From Acanthamoeba lenticulata (taxonomy: Eukaryota; Discosea; Longamoebia; Acanthamoebidae), in the NCBI GenBank assembly GCA_002179805.1, contig NAVB01000025.1, positions 1-53,421 on the forward strand: DNA of 53,421 nucleotides, given 5' to 3'. Below, piece by piece: positions 3,552 to 42,849 of this stretch (positions are counted from its first letter, which is position 1; the number at the start of each line of letters is the position of its first letter). The notes under the pieces were generated by a model. It saw only the letters and a list, made by a program, of their open reading frames with translations. It made no database searches and was not told where the DNA came from. Both the position numbers and the translations under genes were made by a program.

Positions 3552-6500
3552 TCAAAGGGCACGCACAAACGTGCCATCAAGGGTCCACTCTTGCACTCCG
3601 TTCTCTCCAGCCACGAGGACGTGGCCCGAGCGTGAATCCATCGCCACGCCCCTTGGGAATATGAACTGGCCTGGGCCGGTCCCCTTGGAACCAAAGGCGC
3701 ACACAAAGGTGCCATCGTCGCTCCACACCAGCACCCGGTGGTTGCCAGCGTCGGCCATGATGATGTGGCCCGATTGCTCATCTACCGCCACGCCCCTGGG
3801 GCATCGGAACTGGCCAGGGCCATCTCCCTGGGAGCCAAAGGCGCGGATGAGGGTGCCGTTGGCGCTCCACACTTGCACTCGATGGTCGTCGACAACAACA
3901 ACGTCGCCCGAGTGTGAATCCACCGCCACGCCCTTCGGCGCGATGAACTGGCCGGCGCTGGTGCCTCTTGAGCCAAAGGCGCGAATGAAGGTGCCGTCAG
4001 TGCGCAACACCTGCACCCGATCATTTCCGGCGTCGGCAACAACGAGCTCATCCGATCGCGCGTTGAGCGCCACGCCACGGGGCTCAATGAACTCGCCAGG
4101 GCCTGATCCACGGGAGCCAAAGGCACGCACGAAGGTGCCGTCGGTGCGCCACACCTCCACCTGCAACTCGCCATGGCGAGAGTCGGTAATGAAGATGTCG
4201 CCTGAGCGTGCATCTACCGCCACGCCCCTGGCCCCCTGGCCCGTTCGTTTTGTGCCAAAGGCGCTGATGGCCTTGCCGCTGGCAGCACTCCACACCTGTA
4301 CAGTGTTTCTGGTGTCGGTGACGATGATGTTGCCCGAGCGCGGATCCACTGCCACACTTGACAGACTCTTGCATTTGTCGGGGACCGCGCCTGATAGCGG
4401 GTGATGGATTGCCGTCGAGGGCCGCAGGTCCACCGCTGCTTTGTCGCTGCTCGTCAAGACGCCGAAGCTGCGCGGTTCGATGATGGAGCTTTCAAACGAG
4501 ATTTGCCTCTCGCGGCAACTCTTCTGGGCCGCCTCAGCAGCTTCCACCGCCGCCGTTGCTGCTGTCGTCGCCGTGTTCACTGTCTCTGGCACCAGCAAGC
4601 GACTCCCACTGCTGGCGAGGAAGGGAGCGCGCACACGCTGCTCCAGCTCGTGCTCTGCCGCTTCGAGCGCCGCTCTAGCCGCTTCGAGCTTGGCCTCCCG
4701 CGCCTTGTTCTCGGTCTCGCATTTGGAATCCCACGCGTCCATCTCCTCCTCCAGCTTGCGCTGCTGCTTGGCAACGGCCACGAGCAGCTCGTCAAAGTGC
4801 TTTTTCATGGCCATGCGCGCCTCGTGCCCGCTGGCCCGCTCCTTCTCGGCCCTGCCCCGCTCGGCTTGCACGGTCTCGTCCAGGCCGGCCATGGCGTTCT
4901 TGACTTGGTCGAGCTCGTCCTGCGCGGCCTTGCGCAGGCGCGCCTCGGCCTCGGCCAGCATGACGGCATCGTGGCCCTTGTGCGGCCCAGAGATGAGGCA
5001 CATGGAACACACAGGCGTGGCGTCTCGCTCGCACCACAGCATAGCCCGTCGGTCCCGGTGGCGCACGCACTGCGGCGCGTGCGCGCTGGCGGGCGCATGG
5101 GCCACTTTGACGCGCTCGTGCCTAGAAAGGGCGCGCGAGACGTGTTTTGCGCTGTCACATGCGGTGCACAAGGACACATCACAGGTGGCACAGAAAAACG
5201 AGGCGGGCCTCTCGTCACACTCGGCACACATGATGGGGAGGGCCACATCGGCACTTGGTGGCTCCTTGTTCCCCTTTTCACCTGCACCAGGCCGCATAGC
5301 CATGATGAGGAACCACGCATGCGAGACGATGAATTGAGGAAACGCACCGGCGGGAGGCGGGACGACGCTCGGGTACACGAGGGCCCGCGGCACATCATCG
5401 ACCTGGCCAGACGCGTTCTTGGCCACAGGATCACCACCAATCGGCCTGCGCAGGGCCGCGATGAGCGCAGTCGCACGTGCCTCCTTCTCCTCTTCTTCCT
5501 CCTCCTTGAGAAGAGACTCGAGAGGCAGCAGGTCGGATAGGCCAGAAGACGAGGACACGTCGGGAACGGGAAGCGGCACCGGTTCCTCCTCCTCCTCCTC
5601 CTCTTCCTCCTCCTCTTCTTCCTCATGTTCCTCTTCTCCCCCTTCCTCTTCTTCCTCATCGGACGAATCGCCAGCCAGCTCCAGCTTGTCCAAGCACGTC
5701 GGGCACAGGACCCTGTCGGTGATTGGGTCGTTCTCAGAGGCCTCCCCTTGAACCGCTTCCTCTTGTGCCTCTGCCCCTGCCACAGGTACTGGTGCCATCC
5801 GCTCTCTCAGAAAGGGCAACATGCACAGGAGTTCAGGAGGCGCGTACGGTGAATCATCTCCCAGGCGTTTTGGCTGTGGATGAGCTTGCCATCCTTGTCT
5901 GCGATGAAGACTCCCAGCATCTTGGACAGGGGCCCGTTCTCGCCTGGGCTGTGCATCGCCTCGACGTGATCCCAGCCGCAGGCCACTTCGATGACGCCAT
6001 GCGTCCTCCTCAGCTCAAAATCGGCCGAAATATGCGCCCACGTGTAGTGCTGCTGCTCGGGCATGTTGGAGTGCTGGCCTCGAAAGCCTGAGAACGTGAC
6101 TGAGGGTCGGATGGCACGGGCCTGGTCCAAGGACAGGTGAATACTCAGGCGTGTCGTCGTGGGTTCGACCACGAGCTGGGCCATCGGCACGGCCGGGCAA
6201 AGGAAGGGCCGACGCGTTGACGTCGTCGTCACAGCCGTTGGTCGGGCCTGCTGCTCTTGTGGCGGGCGGATGCTGGAAGAGCCGGAGCTGGATGCAACCC
6301 GGTGGAGCTTGGCAGACCCGCTGGAGGTTGCTGTTTCCTTGCCTGCAGGAGGCGCACTCTCCTTGGAGAACACGGGACGAAGTCGCTTTGCTCCTTTATC
6401 GACGACAGTTGCATTTGGGTTGGTATTCCTCCTCTTCCCTGTCTGACCCTTCTTTCCGTGGGTCGTTTTGTGTTTGCCCAGGCCCTGAGCATTCTTGCAC

Positions 6501-23324: not shown

Positions 23325-25584
23325 ATGGACGGGACGACGCCCCCAGAGTGTGACCACAACAAGGCCCAGCAGCCACTGCAGAAGCTTTGGGGCTCGCTTC
23401 GGGACTGGGCGGTTTGGTTTTACGCCCTCTTTGCGCTGCCTGACTACGTCATCGGCGACCCGAGCAACTCAGCAAAAGATGACCATGAAGCGCTCCCCGA
23501 CTACAAGCTTGCGCTGGCAGAGGAGGGCTACACCGTGAAACAAGGCAAGGAGTTTATTCTGCGGTTTGCACGAGCGCTGGCCAATACGGATATGGCCACG
23601 CACAAGGTCACCGACATGTGCACCACGCTGGCCAAGTCGTTGGGCGTCGAGGCCACCTTCCTCGTGCTCCACTCGACGATCATCGCCTCGTTTCCTCCGA
23701 TCAAGCCCGCTGACGACGCCTCGTCGTCCGGCCCGGCCCCGCCCTCTCCGTCCGTTGATGCCCGACACAGCAACCCGCTGGCCGCCCCGTTGCTCGCGGT
23801 CCCAACGCCCACGGGGCAGGCCGTCGACGATGTAGAAGACGATGGTGAAGAAGAAGACGATGCCGCCACGTTCATGATAGAAGATCCGCCCAAAATGGGC
23901 CGGTCATGGTGGCCGCTGGCCAAAGTGGGCAAAATGAAAAAGAAGAAGAAGCCGCGATCGGTCAGCTGGGTGGCCTCCCATCGACTCGTTCGCTCGCGGG
24001 GCAAGCTCACCCGGCCCGTCACGCCCTTTCACCGCACGCCCTTCGTCTCGTCGTCCGCCGAACTCAGCGCCACGGAGACGCACATCGTCCCCACGGCCCC
24101 CGTCCGCAACTGCGAGATGATGCTCCTCCTGGGCCTCCTCCGCCTCCGCTTGGCGACAGGTTTGTACTTTCCGCCAACAGCAAGTTTATCTCTTTATTTT
24201 TTTTAATCTCTTATTTTTCGTATTATTCCTCTTTTTATGATTCTTATTATTTTTTTAATTAATATAATTTGCAGGTGAATTCACGCTGGGCCAGGCCATC
24301 GACTCGCTGGCCCGAATTGAGGCCGCGCCGCCGCGCTACCATCCGCTGGCCACCATCGCCAGCTACGCGCTGACGTCAACATCGTGCATCACCGTCTTCT
24401 ACGGCGGCCACTGGGCCGACATCTGGCTGGCCTTGCTCCTCGGTGCGTGCCAAGCGGACCGCAAGTTCGCGGGCTTGAACTGACCGCACGAGCTCGTGGG
24501 ATTCTCGTCGCGCAGGGACGATGGTCGGGACGGTGGCCTTCTTCTGCAGCCGGCGGCTGGGCATGCGCGGCTTCTCCGACTTTCTGTCGGCCATCGTGAT
24601 TGCCTTCTTCGGGTCGGTCCTGGCCTCGCTCCACGGCGGTCTGTGCTACCAAGGCGACATCATCGCCGCGCTCGTGTGGCCGCTGCCGGGCATCGCCATC
24701 ACCGTCGCCATGCAGGAGCTGGCCGCTCTCAACGTCACCACCGGCGCCTCGCGCCTCGTCCTCAGCTACTTTGCGCTCATCCAGCTCGGCCTCGGTACCT
24801 CCTCGCTCTGGCCTTGGCCGACCTTGGACCGGCACGAGGGCTGACTCCTGGTTGTGTTGCTGTTGTTGTTGTTGCTGCTGGTGGCCACCTGCGGCCCAGG
24901 CATTTCCATCGGCGAGACGATCCTGCAAAAGGCCTGGCCCCACCCGATCCCCAACGTGTGCCACGAGGTGGACCTGTGGGAAAAGCCCATCCTGCTGCCC
25001 CTGGCCTCCCTCGGCTTCTCCGGCCTGCTTCGGGTGCGTCGCGCGAATGGGGACGGCCGAGCCTGGCTCGTTGGGACTGACCTGGACCTGCCCCCTTCTT
25101 CTCCTCCCGCAGTCGCACCCGCGGCAATACCCGCCGCAGTTGATCATCGCTGTCCTGTCCTACCTGGTCAAGGTCGTCTGCTCCGAGTATCTCGGGTTCA
25201 GCGACGACAACGCCACGGCCATCAGCGCCTTTAGCGTGGGCCTCATGGGCAACCTGCACAGCCGGTTCACGGGCCAGCCGGCCTACGCGCTCACCCTCCA
25301 GTCGCTGTTTGTCGTGCGCACGGGCGGCATCGGCCTGCGAGGAATGCGGGCCGTCGCCGCGGGGGACTTCATGGGCGGCCTCACGCTGATCTACACCATG
25401 ACCTCCAACAGCTTCGCGCTTGCCATCGGTAACAAACTCTTGGCCTCTTGCCTTTTTCGTTCATTTCTTGATTGGTCTTCCCTTCTGGAGATCTCGTCTG
25501 ACCTTGGCGGGGATGACAGGCTTGCTGGCGGCCAACATTCCTTTCCGCTTCCGCTCCCGCAACCGATTCTCCAAGTGGGGTTGA
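23325..25584 (+). CDS. ThrE-family (DUF1212) membrane transporter
   Basis: Six exons: 23325-24159, 24275-24442, 24516-24794, 24900-25033, 25113-25428 and 25520-25584. Phases close, giving 598 aa. The N-terminal part has the soluble ThrE signature region (FILRFARALANTDMATHKVT, then LAKSLGVEATFLVLHS). A low-complexity Ser/Pro/acidic insert follows. The C-terminal half has about ten hydrophobic segments, including FLSAIVIAFFGSVLASL, MQELAALNVTTGASRLVLSY and GLRGMRAVAAGDFMGGLTL. Bacterial ThrE exports threonine and serine; fungal relatives (the Prm10 type) are vacuolar or plasma-membrane proteins of unknown substrate. The ATG at 23325 is the last of several in-frame options and is followed by plausible sequence, MDGTTPPECD. 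Confidence 0.9.
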
Positions 25585-25645
25585 AGGGAGTCGCCACATG
25601 TGGTCTTTTGTACGAATAAATACAATAAAAAACATTTCCTGTACG

Positions 25646-25809
25646 TGGGATGGGAGAACATGCAAGGCGGCGGCGATGGCGGGCCGCTTGGCCTTGCTCC
25701 AGTGGGCGCGTGCCAACGGCTGCCCGTGGGACAAGCGCACTTGCGAAGCGGCAGCAAGTGGAGGCCACCAGCGCGTGTTGGAATGGGCGCGTGCGAATGG
25801 CTGCCCGAA
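25646..25809 (+). pseudogene. Orphan ankyrin-like repeats (two units)
   Basis: About 54 codons encode two repeats of the type WDxRTCxAAAxxGxLxLLQW followed by ARANGCPW. These are the same 27-residue repeats as the gene at 41369-42541. There is no F-box part and no plausible start or splice context, and it lies in a 300-bp gap between two convergent genes. It is best read as a relic or retained fragment of a larger repeat gene. Confidence 0.7.
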
Positions 25810-25882
25810 TAAAACAAAAGCACGTTTGACTCCTCTGATTGAGACCAAAACCCAAACACAATGATGGACTCGAGCCTGAATG

Positions 25883-27566
25883 TCAAAAGGACTCGTTCTC
25901 GGCGATGATGGCCTCGAGGATGGCCGCTGGCACCAGCTCCGCTGCTCCGCCCTCGCCGAGCTGGCGAAAGGGACGTTCCAGCTGGAAACAATCAAAAAAC
26001 AATAAATACAAAGATTAGATAAACACATAAATACATAAATAAATATCTTGCGAGAACAAGAACGAGAATGGGTGGACAAAAACCTGAATTCTCTGGTAGA
26101 AGAGCATGTAGGCGCCCCGTTCGCCAACCGCAGGGATCTGCTCTGGGTCAAAACGCTGCACGACGGTGTCGTCAAACTTGTACCAGTTGAGCTGCGTTGC
26201 GCCCGCCTCCTTGGCCACATTCTCCTGCGAGAGCCGTTCGTTGATCGAAAAGTGGTCAATCGGCTGCTCACAACACACAAGGGACGTGAGCAACGATGTT
26301 TACGCGAAGGACGGCATAATAACGGCCTTTGCGTGTGGACTTGCCCGTGTGCACGATGAAGCCCGTGAGCTGGAACTGGTAGTAGGCCTTGTCCCGTTGA
26401 ACCTCATCGAGCACTGCACAAGAGGGACCCAAGGTCATGATGATGACGATGATGAAGATGATGTGTTTGTCGTGTGAAAGATGAGGAACAGCACGCACGG
26501 GACAAGCCCTCCTTCTTTGCCAGCGCCTCCCTGGTGTAGGGCTCCATGTCAAGGACCATTGGGAACGCGCAAACGTCGTTGATCTTGTCTAGCGTCATCT
26601 TTTCCAAGTTGAACTCGAATCTGCGCAGGTGGATGGTCAACATGTCGGGAAGAGACTTGAAGCAGCAGCGCTTGAGCGCCGCCACCTGATGTGACGATGA
26701 AGACAAAGGGGATGGTGATGTGTCTTGAGTTGTCTGTTCAAGTTCAATTAAATACGGTGTTGAAGTGCACCTCGCGCTCGCATTTCTGGCAGGTGAAAGA
26801 TCCCCAGTTGCAATCAATTCGTTCGCCCTCCACGTAGGCGGCCAAGGCCTCGGGCAGCGATTTGTGGTTCTTGATCTCCACGCTCAGGGCAAAAAGAGGC
26901 TCTGTGCACTCTAACAAGTGTGTGCAACGAGGGTCCCTTGTGATGTACTGGATGACCTGTTCATTCTCAAAGAATTGGCGGACCAACTCTTCCTAGAAAT
27001 ACACACACAACACACATAGTGTCAGAGCCTCCACCGTTGCTCTGCAGCAACATGTTGAGTTAAATCGTGTCGAGTACCGGAAGTTTGTCCAGTAAGAGGT
27101 GCCTGAACTCACTAACGTCCCGCATCGCAGTAACATCCATCGGCTTCAGTTCCATTCAGCGTCACACAAACATGAACGCTTAGAAAGACCTTTTCGTTTG
27201 CCTGCAACATCACCGCTGCAACTTACTTGGCCATCATAGTCCTTGAAAGCGTGACAGAAACTCTTGGGGTTGTGGAAATTGAGCTCGCTCTCTTGCAGGT
27301 ACGAGAACACCTTTTGCAGTTGCCACACGATGCTCTCCTTCTTGTCCTCGGCCGGATTCTCGGGGAGCGACATGATGGCCCACCGGAACTCGGGCACCAT
27401 GAAGAGCTGTTGCAGCACCACGTTGACGTAGCCCGTCGCACCAAGGTTCTTTAATCCAACATACTCTTCACTCCCTTGCCCTTTGTTTTTATTATGCACA
27501 GATTACAACTCTAAAAAGCAAAAAAGCACTCTTAAAAGCAAACGCGAGGTGCGTACCTGACTGCAT
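25883..27566 (-). CDS. Ubiquitin-specific protease-fold protein lacking catalytic Cys and His (pseudo-USP)
   Basis: Eight exons: 27566-27557, 27480-27227, 27143-27078, 26992-26771, 26685-26499, 26413-26304, 26266-26084 and 25981-25883. Phases close, giving 376 aa; the 10-nt first exon is the least certain. The frame follows the USP9X-like USP domain: GLKNLGATGYVNVVLQQL (Cys box), SEFRHLLLDKL, LPDMLTIHLRRFEFNLE, FQLTGFIVHTGKSTRKGRYY (His box) and WYKFDDTVVQRFD. The catalytic Cys of GATCY is Gly (codon 27433-27431) and the His of GHYY is Arg (26324-26322). No stop or frameshift is seen, so it may be a non-catalytic ubiquitin binder or a very young pseudogene. Its length is that of a bare domain; USP9X itself is far larger, so the 5' part may be lost. 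Confidence 0.82.
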
Positions 27567-28026: not shown

Positions 28027-28656
28027 ATGTCTGCTCCCGTCGTTATCAACACGGCTGCGCCCGTGGCGACCACCACGACCGTGTCATCGCCCGCCAAGCG
28101 CCAGGGCTTCCTGGGCCGCCTGAAGCAGCGCACCAACAGCGGGCCGCTGCTCGCCATCCGCCGCGCGGTGTGGATCGTGCTCTCCGGCATCCCGCTGGCG
28201 CTGCTCTTCCTCACCGCGGCGCTGTCCTTTGCCGTCACCATCATCGGCCTCCCGGTCGCGTGGGAGCTGCTCAAGGTGGCGCGCTACGCCTTCTGCCCGA
28301 TCGGCTACAAGGCCGTCCCCGCGTCGGGCCGGGGCAAGAACCCCCTGCGCAACCCCAACTCGCCGCTGACCATCGCCGCCAACGTCATCTGGGCCATCTT
28401 CTTCGGCATCCCGCTCTCCGTCGCCTTCCTCTTCATGTGCATCATCCAGGCCCTGACCATCATCGGCATCCCGTCGGCCCTCCAGTTCCCCAAGCTGGCC
28501 CTCTTCGCCCTGTGGCCCGTGGGCAAGAAGATCGTCAGCGCCAACAAGTACGCCGCCGCCAAGCAGGCCCGCAACGACCTCGCCACCGCCGAGGCCATCC
28601 GCCGCAACGAGGCCGCCGCTGCCGTCGCCGCCACCACCCCGGCCGGCCTCGTCTGA
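28027..28656 (+). CDS. YccF-domain membrane protein, duplicated domain
   Basis: An intronless frame of 209 aa opens MSAPVVINTAAPVATTT. Two homologous halves each contain a YccF-like unit (IRRAVWIVLSGIPLALLFLT then FAVTIIGLPVAW; and LTIAANVIWAIFFGIPLS then QALTIIGIPSALQFPKLALF). The TIIGIP core and the FALWPVGK ending are characteristic of the bacterial YccF/DUF307 inner-membrane domain. The C-terminal tail is Ala-rich and charged. YccF function is unknown in bacteria. The lack of introns in an intron-rich neighbourhood and the bacterial family make lateral transfer plausible. Location is probably a membrane, topology four helices. Confidence 0.88.
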   Translation: MSAPVVINTAAPVATTTTVSSPAKRQGFLGRLKQRTNSGPLLAIRRAVWIVLSGIPLALLFLTAALSFAVTIIGLPVAWELLKVARYAFCPIGYKAVPASGRGKNPLRNPNSPLTIAANVIWAIFFGIPLSVAFLFMCIIQALTIIGIPSALQFPKLALFALWPVGKKIVSANKYAAAKQARNDLATAEAIRRNEAAAAVAATTPAGLV

Positions 28657-41368: not shown

Positions 41369-42541
41369 TCACCGCCTGGGCTTGATCCGTACGGGCAGCC
41401 ATTGGCTAGCCCACTGGAGAACCTCCATGTGACCTGCTCGGTCCGCCTCCTCGCATGTTCTCCTATCCCAGGGGCAGCCGTTCGCTCGAGCCCACTGAAG
41501 CACAGCCAAGTGACCTCCCCCGGCCGCCCAGGCGCAGGTCAGCTCGTCCCATGGGCAGCCGTTGGCGTGCGCCCACTGGAGCACGGTCAGGTGGCCGCCC
41601 TTGGCTGCCACGGCACAGGTCCACCAGTTCCAAGGGCAGCCGTTGGTACGCGCCCACTGGAGCACGGCCAGATGGCCGCCCCTGGCCGCTTGACCGCAGG
41701 TGTCCTCGTCCCACGGGCAGCCGTTGGCGCGCAACCACTGGAGCACGGTCAGGTGGCCGCCCCGGGCGGCCTCGCGGCAGGCTTTCCAACTCTGTGGGCA
41801 GCCATTGGCGTGGGCCCACTGGAGCACGCCCAAGTGGCCTTGCCTGGCCGCGTTGGCAAAGGTTGACATGTCCCATGGGCAGCCGTTGGCGCGGGCCCAT
41901 TGGAGCACGTGAAGGTGGCCTCTCGCCGCAGCGCAGGCACAGGTGGCCTCGTCCCACGGACAGCCATTGGCGCGCAACCACTGGAGCACGTTCAAGTGGC
42001 CCTCCCGAGCCGCCACGCGGCAGGTGTCCTTGTTCCAGGGACAGCCATTGGCGCGCGCCCACTGGAGCACGTCCAAGTGGCCGCCCTCTGCAGCGCGAAC
42101 ACAAGTGTCCTCGTCCCACGGGTAGCCATTCTCATGCGCCCACTGGAGTACGTGCAGGTGGCCTCCACTGGCCGCCTTGCTGCAGATGCCCGCGCTCCAG
42201 GGGCATCCGGTGGAGAGTGCCCACTGGAGCTGAGCCAACTGGCCCTTGGCCGCCACTTGAACTGCAAAACCGGGCAAAGAACGCCTCCAGCGAAAGGTGC
42301 ATGTGGTCATGCGTGGCAGCTTGATGTGCGGGTGCATGAGCAAAAGATGTTGAACTGCCTGGTCCCATGAGCGGCACACGGCGCGGCAGGCGGGCAAGGT
42401 GAGGAGGTCGACGAACTGGAAGATGAGACTTACAAGCTCCACCATGAGGTCGAGAGCGGGCAGCACGAAGAGGGCCTCGTCCACCTCCGCCACGGTCAGC
42501 TCAGTCGCCTGGGCTGGAAAGGCCTGGTGTGGCATGTCCAT
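41369..42541 (-). CDS. F-box-like protein with 27-residue ankyrin-type repeats
   Basis: An intronless frame of 390 aa starts at the ATG at 42541 (MDMPHQAFPAQATELTVAEV). Residues about 30-75 are F-box-like (LMVELVSLIFQFVDLLTLPA, then CRAVCRSWDQAVQHLL). About ten tandem repeats of 27 residues follow, each of the form WDEDTCxxAAxGGHLxVLQW plus ARANGCP. This is an ankyrin-like repeat class expanded in Acanthamoeba and in some giant viruses of amoebae. F-box proteins recruit targets to SCF ubiquitin ligases; the repeats would be the target-binding part. Near-identity of several repeats at DNA level suggests recent unequal crossing-over. Longer upstream in-frame sequence to 42814 is not convincing. 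Confidence 0.85.
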   Translation of the reverse strand: MDMPHQAFPAQATELTVAEVDEALFVLPALDLMVELVSLIFQFVDLLTLPACRAVCRSWDQAVQHLLLMHPHIKLPRMTTCTFRWRRSLPGFAVQVAAKGQLAQLQWALSTGCPWSAGICSKAASGGHLHVLQWAHENGYPWDEDTCVRAAEGGHLDVLQWARANGCPWNKDTCRVAAREGHLNVLQWLRANGCPWDEATCACAAARGHLHVLQWARANGCPWDMSTFANAARQGHLGVLQWAHANGCPQSWKACREAARGGHLTVLQWLRANGCPWDEDTCGQAARGGHLAVLQWARTNGCPWNWWTCAVAAKGGHLTVLQWAHANGCPWDELTCAWAAGGGHLAVLQWARANGCPWDRRTCEEADRAGHMEVLQWASQWLPVRIKPRR

Positions 42542-42663
42542 TTTGGTTCCGTTCGCCAACTGCAGTTTGGGAAGATGATTGAAATTTTTTAGTTGGGGAC
42601 AAAAAACGCGCGTTGGGAATGTTTTCACAGCACAAAGTGCTTTTCTACTGTGGCAGTCATAGG

Positions 42664-42704
42664 GGCCGCGCCGAGTGCCGCTCATGGGACCAGGCAGTTC
42701 AGCA
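42664..42704 (+). pseudogene. Fragment of an F-box exon, inverted
   Basis: The stretch GCCGCGCCGAGTGCCGCTCA and the following bases repeat the CRSWDQAVQH-coding part of the gene at 41369-42541, but on the opposite strand. The match is about 40 bp with a few changes and ends without neighbouring repeats. A small inverted duplication relic. Confidence 0.7.
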
Positions 42705-42849
42705 TGCCCTCCAACTTGCCTGCCACCAAGATACACACTGTTCTTCTTGGCCCAGACAGCCAAGGACCCAATGCAACGCACTACTTGAGCTTTGGTGCTG
42801 TGCGGGTGGCCCATACATGTGAAAGTAATGCTGTGCCTCCACTAATCAG

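What the first reader, a model, noticed from the sequence alone, without database searches (positions are those of the whole stretch)
25883..27566. A complete USP fold that has lost both catalytic Cys and catalytic His
The frame is open through eight phased exons and keeps the USP core motifs, yet the Cys-box reads GATGY (expected GATCY) and the His-box reads GRYY (expected GHYY). Two independent hits on the catalytic residues without any stop or frameshift suggest selection for a non-catalytic ubiquitin-binding role. A very recent pseudogene is the alternative. An apparent loss of the large N-terminal part of USP9X-like proteins adds to the oddity.
Basis: partly seen in the sequence, partly recalled or inferred. 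Interest (0 to 1): 0.75.

Follow-up and report, generated by a model that had tools for sequence, protein, structure and literature searches.

The report
Catalytically dead duplicate of a deubiquitinase
An Acanthamoeba gene is a stand-alone copy of a ubiquitin-removing enzyme domain whose two key catalytic residues are gone although the reading frame is intact, so it is probably an inactive relative kept for some other role, of a kind already known from other organisms.

Summary
On the minus strand, 27566-25883, eight exons with seven GT-AG introns give an open frame (380 aa as first read, 362 aa after two homology-guided splice corrections); Pfam UCH 7e-41. The Cys-box reads GATGY, the His-box GRYY; the third and fourth critical residues (FDD) remain. 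The protein is a paralogue of a catalytically intact USP9X/USP34-type gene on contig C409 (50% identity; sister at 99/91), cut down to the USP domain. Its branch is about nine times longer than that of C409 (1.65 vs 0.18), yet this is not free drift: its changes follow family conservation (r = 0.37; at most 0.18 in 600 neutral simulations), and it has no stop where neutral drift leaves 8-11 on average. Of 41 near-invariant columns 34 are kept; the seven losses include Cys, His and three neighbours in active-site motifs. All 34 other Cys-boxes inspected in this genome keep Cys. Best reading: a pseudo-deubiquitinase, a known kind (USP39/Sad1). A gene long constrained but now decaying is not excluded. 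Expression and ubiquitin binding are not shown.

The parts
27557..27566 (-). exon 1 (ATG, 10 nt); weakest part of the model
   Evidence: ATG plus GT donor, phase fits exon 2; no homology
27227..27480 (-). exon 2, Cys-box with Gly at the catalytic Cys (residue 20); Asn 15 kept
   Evidence: Pfam UCH hit to C25:27233-27460; alignments
27078..27143 (-). exon 3, QxD-box (conserved Q changed to M at residue 95)
26771..26992 (-). exon 4, fingers region, CxxC kept
   Evidence: donor corrected on homology to C409
26499..26685 (-). exon 5, best conserved part (61% to C409 in tblastn)
   Evidence: intron 5 after it shares position and phase with the C409 intron (read)
26304..26413 (-). exon 6, His-box with Arg at the catalytic His (residue 277)
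26084..26224 (-). exon 7, WYKFDD (third and fourth critical residues kept), CFGG loop missing
   Evidence: acceptor corrected on homology to C409
25883..25981 (-). exon 8, C-terminal segment and stop; homology to C409 ends at the stop

Best explanation
A pseudo-deubiquitinase. The USP domain of a USP9X/USP34-type gene was duplicated in the Acanthamoeba lineage without the parent's long N- and C-terminal parts, and then evolved fast. Shown here: the copy lost catalytic Cys, His and several active-site neighbours, while the frame, the splice sites and most near-invariant positions of the USP domain were kept. Inferred: the protein is made, folds as a USP domain, cannot hydrolyse isopeptide bonds, and acts by binding (a partner of the parent enzyme, or ubiquitin outside the tail-binding cleft) as a scaffold or competitor.
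For: Open 8-exon frame with 7 GT-AG introns; UCH 7e-41; sister to active-looking C409, 99/91; of 41 columns at least 95% conserved 34 kept, lost C20G S24V Q95M N174G H277R S280A G319R; identity to C409 goes, not quite steadily, from 28% in the most variable to 83% in the near-invariant columns, r 0.37, against flat 50% and r at most 0.18 in 600 neutral simulations; omega = 1 on the window branch rejected in four of four settings, p 1e-13 to 0.023; 34 of 34 other Cys-boxes inspected keep Cys.
Against: GC3 is 0.75 against 0.94 in both paralogues, which fits relaxed selection or weak expression. Omega swings from 0.09 to 0.62 with the composition model, synonymous change being saturated. Loss of about 8 and about 24 residues and of both flanks could harm folding. 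The window row is flagged as a long branch in the tree. Some active-looking family members also lose 6-8 of the 41 columns. No transcript, orthologue or polymorphism data.
Confidence: 0.6

Rival explanations
1. A gene that was kept as a protein for a long time after duplication but has lately lost its function and is now an early pseudogene; the catalytic losses are part of the relaxation.
For: Branch 1.65 vs 0.18; lowered GC3; losses include the non-catalytic N174 and G319; truncated at both ends. The conservation test averages over the whole branch and cannot exclude a short final neutral phase.
Against: No stop, seven intact intron pairs. The wholly neutral version has a joint probability of at best about 0.001-0.002 without indels, about 0.0001 with an assumed indel rate, so the catalytic losses probably came before any neutral phase.
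Confidence: 0.3
2. The copy is still a hydrolase using other residues, or has taken up a new chemistry, as has been argued for USP39 and USP52, which lack the canonical triad.
For: Third and fourth critical residues and Asn 15 are kept; activity has been reported for supposed pseudo-USPs (PMC10919355, passages; PMC12037411, passages).
Against: The nucleophile position is Gly and the base position Arg; S24, Q95 and S280 near them are also changed.
Confidence: 0.05
3. Sequence or assembly error at the two codons.
For: Each of the two codons is one base away from the expected residue; no reads could be checked.
Against: The two losses come with other active-site changes, and Q to M needs more than one base; identity to C409 is only 50%, so this is not a mis-read copy of an active gene. 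No other place in the assembly matches above 61%.
Confidence: 0.05

Closest known systems
C409 USP9X/USP34-type gene of the same genome
   Same: USP domain homologous over the whole copy (50%), one intron at the same position and phase
   Different: C409 has GATCYM, GHYYS, QQD and CFGG, long parts on both sides (read from open frames, not fully spliced), GC3 0.94 and one intron in the domain
USP34 and USP9X (FAF-X) catalytic domains (PDB 7w3r, 5wch)
   Same: Best solved-structure matches by sequence, 7e-43 and 3e-37
   Different: Both have the Cys-box Cys (alignments); the full-length proteins are far larger (recalled)
USP39/Sad1
   Same: USP domain lacking both catalytic Cys and His (PMC10919355, passages)
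   Different: USP39 has an N-terminal ZnF domain, none found here; its Cys is replaced by Asp, here by Gly; another USP branch (recalled)

Membership tests
Peptidase family C19 (active USP) | UCH domain above Pfam cut-off | tested here: met
   140.9 bits against 23.9 (380-aa model)
Peptidase family C19 (active USP) | Catalytic Cys and His | tested here: not met
   Gly 20 and Arg 277; both columns invariant among those of the 122 comparison rows that have a letter there
Peptidase family C19 (active USP) | Third and fourth critical residues (Asp/Asn, then Asp) | tested here: met
   WYKFDD kept; definition from PMC10867860, passages
USP9X/USP34-type subfamily | Nearest relatives by USP domain | tested here: met
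   Sister to C409, then P0038, in a tree of 44 of the 123 aligned rows
USP9X/USP34-type subfamily | Large flanking N- and C-terminal regions | tested here: not met
   No match of the C409 flanks in the window at E 1e-3, apart from ankyrin-type repeats from a separate downstream frame
Pseudo-deubiquitinase | USP domain without catalytic residues | tested here: met
   (by sequence, not by structure)
Pseudo-deubiquitinase | Protein is made and has a non-catalytic function | not testable with these tools
   No transcript or protein data
USP39/Sad1 | N-terminal zinc finger of the ubiquitin-binding type | tested here: not met
   Only UCH and UCH_1 found

The most novel reading that the evidence does not exclude
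A lineage-specific, stand-alone dead USP domain retained as a competitor or adaptor of its active USP9X/34-type parent, guarding the parent's substrates or partners by occupancy alone; a double-dead copy in a USP branch for which I recall no pseudoenzyme (recall, not searched for this branch).
Probability: 0.2. Interest if true: 0.6.

Novelty: new member of a known kind. Interest (0 to 1): 0.35.

Why it matters
If made and kept, it would be a pseudo-deubiquitinase born by partial duplication of a USP9X/34-type gene in an amoeba, with the active-looking parent in the same genome, so parent and dead copy can be compared directly. It also shows that an open USP frame in a protist genome cannot be read as an active enzyme.

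Tried and rejected
Orthologues: the 380-aa model gave 37 proteins at E up to 1e-3, the top hit 33% identical over 94%, candidates limited to about 209-665 aa. A C409-based search (candidates about 650-2080 aa) gave 2460 proteins at E up to 1e-20, 120 of them listed, top hit 59% to C409, none of the listed rows named Acanthamoeba, most rows unnamed. A neighbour gene as control gave 14 proteins, up to 82%, none named Acanthamoeba, so the database may hold few Acanthamoeba proteins and the absence of an orthologue says little. Nucleotide collections (prokaryotes, viruses) were not scanned.

Wholly neutral pseudogene: rejected. Introns invented to skip stops: considered; read against C409, introns 2, 4, 5 and 7 break the alignment without a gap at the junction and intron 6 nearly so, so they look like real introns; intron 3 coincides with a loss of about 8 residues and is less sure. 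C409 flanks in the window: none found. A dN/dS point estimate was given up as model-dependent. Enrichment of losses in active-site motifs (5 of 7 losses in 14 of 41 columns, p 0.035) used columns that I chose after seeing the losses, so it is weak.

Papers: PMC10919355, PMC12037411 and PMC10867860 were seen as passages only; the others only as search listings. (Acanthamoeba with deubiquitinase and USP: 11 papers; with ubiquitin carboxyl-terminal hydrolase: 7 papers) showed no title on this gene.

Full report
What is there. The minus strand between 27566 and 25883 holds eight exons joined by seven GT-AG introns and ending in TGA; the frame is open throughout. Read against its nearest paralogue, two junctions move to other GT or AG sites: exon 4 ends at 26771 and exon 7 starts at 26224. 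This removes a five-residue insertion and a 40-nt intron, leaves introns of 76-102 nt, and gives 362 residues. The 380-residue model matches Pfam UCH with 140.9 bits, and the catalytic domains of USP34 and USP9X are the best solved structures by sequence. Residue 20, the catalytic Cys, is Gly (GATGY); residue 277, the catalytic His, is Arg (GRYY). The FDD that carries the third and fourth critical residues is kept (definition: PMC10867860, passages).

Whose genome. A profilin gene of the same assembly (48.5 Mb, 1825 contigs) is closest to PDB 1f2k, profilin II (3e-73), then to profilins I and IA; that these are Acanthamoeba castellanii proteins is recalled. The species was not determined.

Where it comes from. 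In the own genome the best match outside the locus is on contig C409, 52% over residues 8-252, where a gene carries a full USP domain with GATCYM and GHYYS and long open frames on both sides. A second paralogue on C377 has GCTCYM and GHYYS. In a tree of 44 of the 123 aligned domains the window protein is sister to C409 (99/91), within a starred group with P0038; its branch is 1.65, that of C409 0.18. The tool flags the window row as a long branch, whose place is less sure. Homology to C409 begins just before the Cys-box and ends at the stop codon; no other part of the C409 region matches the window at E 1e-3 except ankyrin-type repeats from a separate frame downstream. The copy thus consists of the USP domain alone.

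Introns. Intron 5 has the position and phase of the one intron in the C409 domain. The other in-domain introns (2, 3, 4, 6, 7) are absent from C409. Gain in the copy or loss in C409 cannot be told from these data.

Is the loss real, and is it special? Against 122 family rows (C409, C377 and the 120 proteins listed), 41 columns are at least 95% conserved. The window keeps 34 and loses C20G, S24V, Q95M, N174G, H277R, S280A and G319R; the median member loses 1, the highest five 6, 7, 7, 7 and 8. Cys, His, S280 and G319 are invariant among the rows with a letter there. At the 90% level 14 of 63 are lost, against a median of 2 and a maximum of 13. In the same genome 34 of 34 other Cys-boxes inspected keep Cys (23, 9 more, 2), several being near-identical pairs of contigs. 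The pattern left the Cys position free but fixed its surroundings; USP places without a listed Cys-box (for instance C1723, C914, C1732, C1070) were not checked, and a USP39-type box may be too diverged to be listed. His-boxes: 17 of 23 loci searched gave a GH match (one of them also a chance match in another frame); 6 gave none by the pattern, 2 of which show GH on reading.

Constraint. If the copy had drifted freely, its differences from the slow C409 would be indifferent to what the family conserves. They are not: identity to C409 over 347 columns is 0.28, 0.36, 0.49, 0.71, 0.59 and 0.83 in six rising classes of family conservation (r = 0.37). In 600 neutral simulations from the C409 codons to the same identity the profile is flat at 0.5, r is at most 0.18, and stops average 10.6 or 8.2, depending on the assumed base composition; at least one run of the 54% GC set had none. 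A three-sequence codon model rejects omega = 1 on the window branch in four of four settings, but omega runs from 0.09 to 0.62 and the weakest p is 0.023; synonymous change is saturated, so I rest nothing on its value. For a purely neutral phase the chance of both catalytic codons changing without any stop peaks near 0.001-0.002, and near 0.0001 with an indel rate that I assumed. All this averages over the time since duplication; a short neutral phase at the end would not show.

Against the pseudoenzyme reading. GC3 is 0.75, in both paralogues 0.94, and introns have 0.42 GC: relaxed codon choice at least. About 8 residues after the QxD-box and about 24 at the CFGG loop are gone. No transcript, strain or orthologue data could be had.

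How it would work. Cleavage needs the Cys thiol and the His base; neither is there, and neighbours (S24, Q95, S280) have changed too, so catalysis is very unlikely. Most near-invariant positions and the CxxC of the fingers are kept. Inferred: the protein persists through a binding role. Whether it binds ubiquitin is open; changes at Q95 and after it speak against normal binding of the ubiquitin tail (the role of these motifs is recalled). Occupying a partner or substrate of C409 is the reading that I think likeliest, but nothing here tests it.

What it is like. Pseudo-USPs without Cys and His are known: USP39/Sad1 (PMC10919355, passages). Supposed pseudo-USPs have also turned out active (USP53 and USP54, PMC12037411, passages), though those have a catalytic Cys and His. 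The find is a new member of a known kind.

Noticed in passing
25517-25861 (+), also read on the minus strand 25646-25858: Fragment of WARANGCPW-type ankyrin-like repeat just downstream of the USP copy; Ank_4 below its cut-off.
   Followed up: partly
41369-42841 (-): Open frame of 490 aa made of many WARANGCPWD-type repeats by eye, a long ankyrin-like protein.
   Followed up: no
28027-28653 (+): YccF membrane protein gene, head to head with the USP copy; unnamed or metagenome relatives up to 82%, the named bacterial hit 31%.
   Followed up: partly
3552-6014 (-): 820-aa frame that looks like a B-box plus NHL-repeat protein by eye.
   Followed up: no
25982-27226, introns: In-domain introns 2, 3, 4, 6 and 7 of the USP copy have no counterpart in its paralogue C409; gain or loss unknown.
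   Followed up: partly
own genome, contig pairs such as C760/C191, C700/C981, C72/C238: Several USP genes occur with the same Cys-box letters on two contigs, as if alleles were assembled apart.
   Followed up: no
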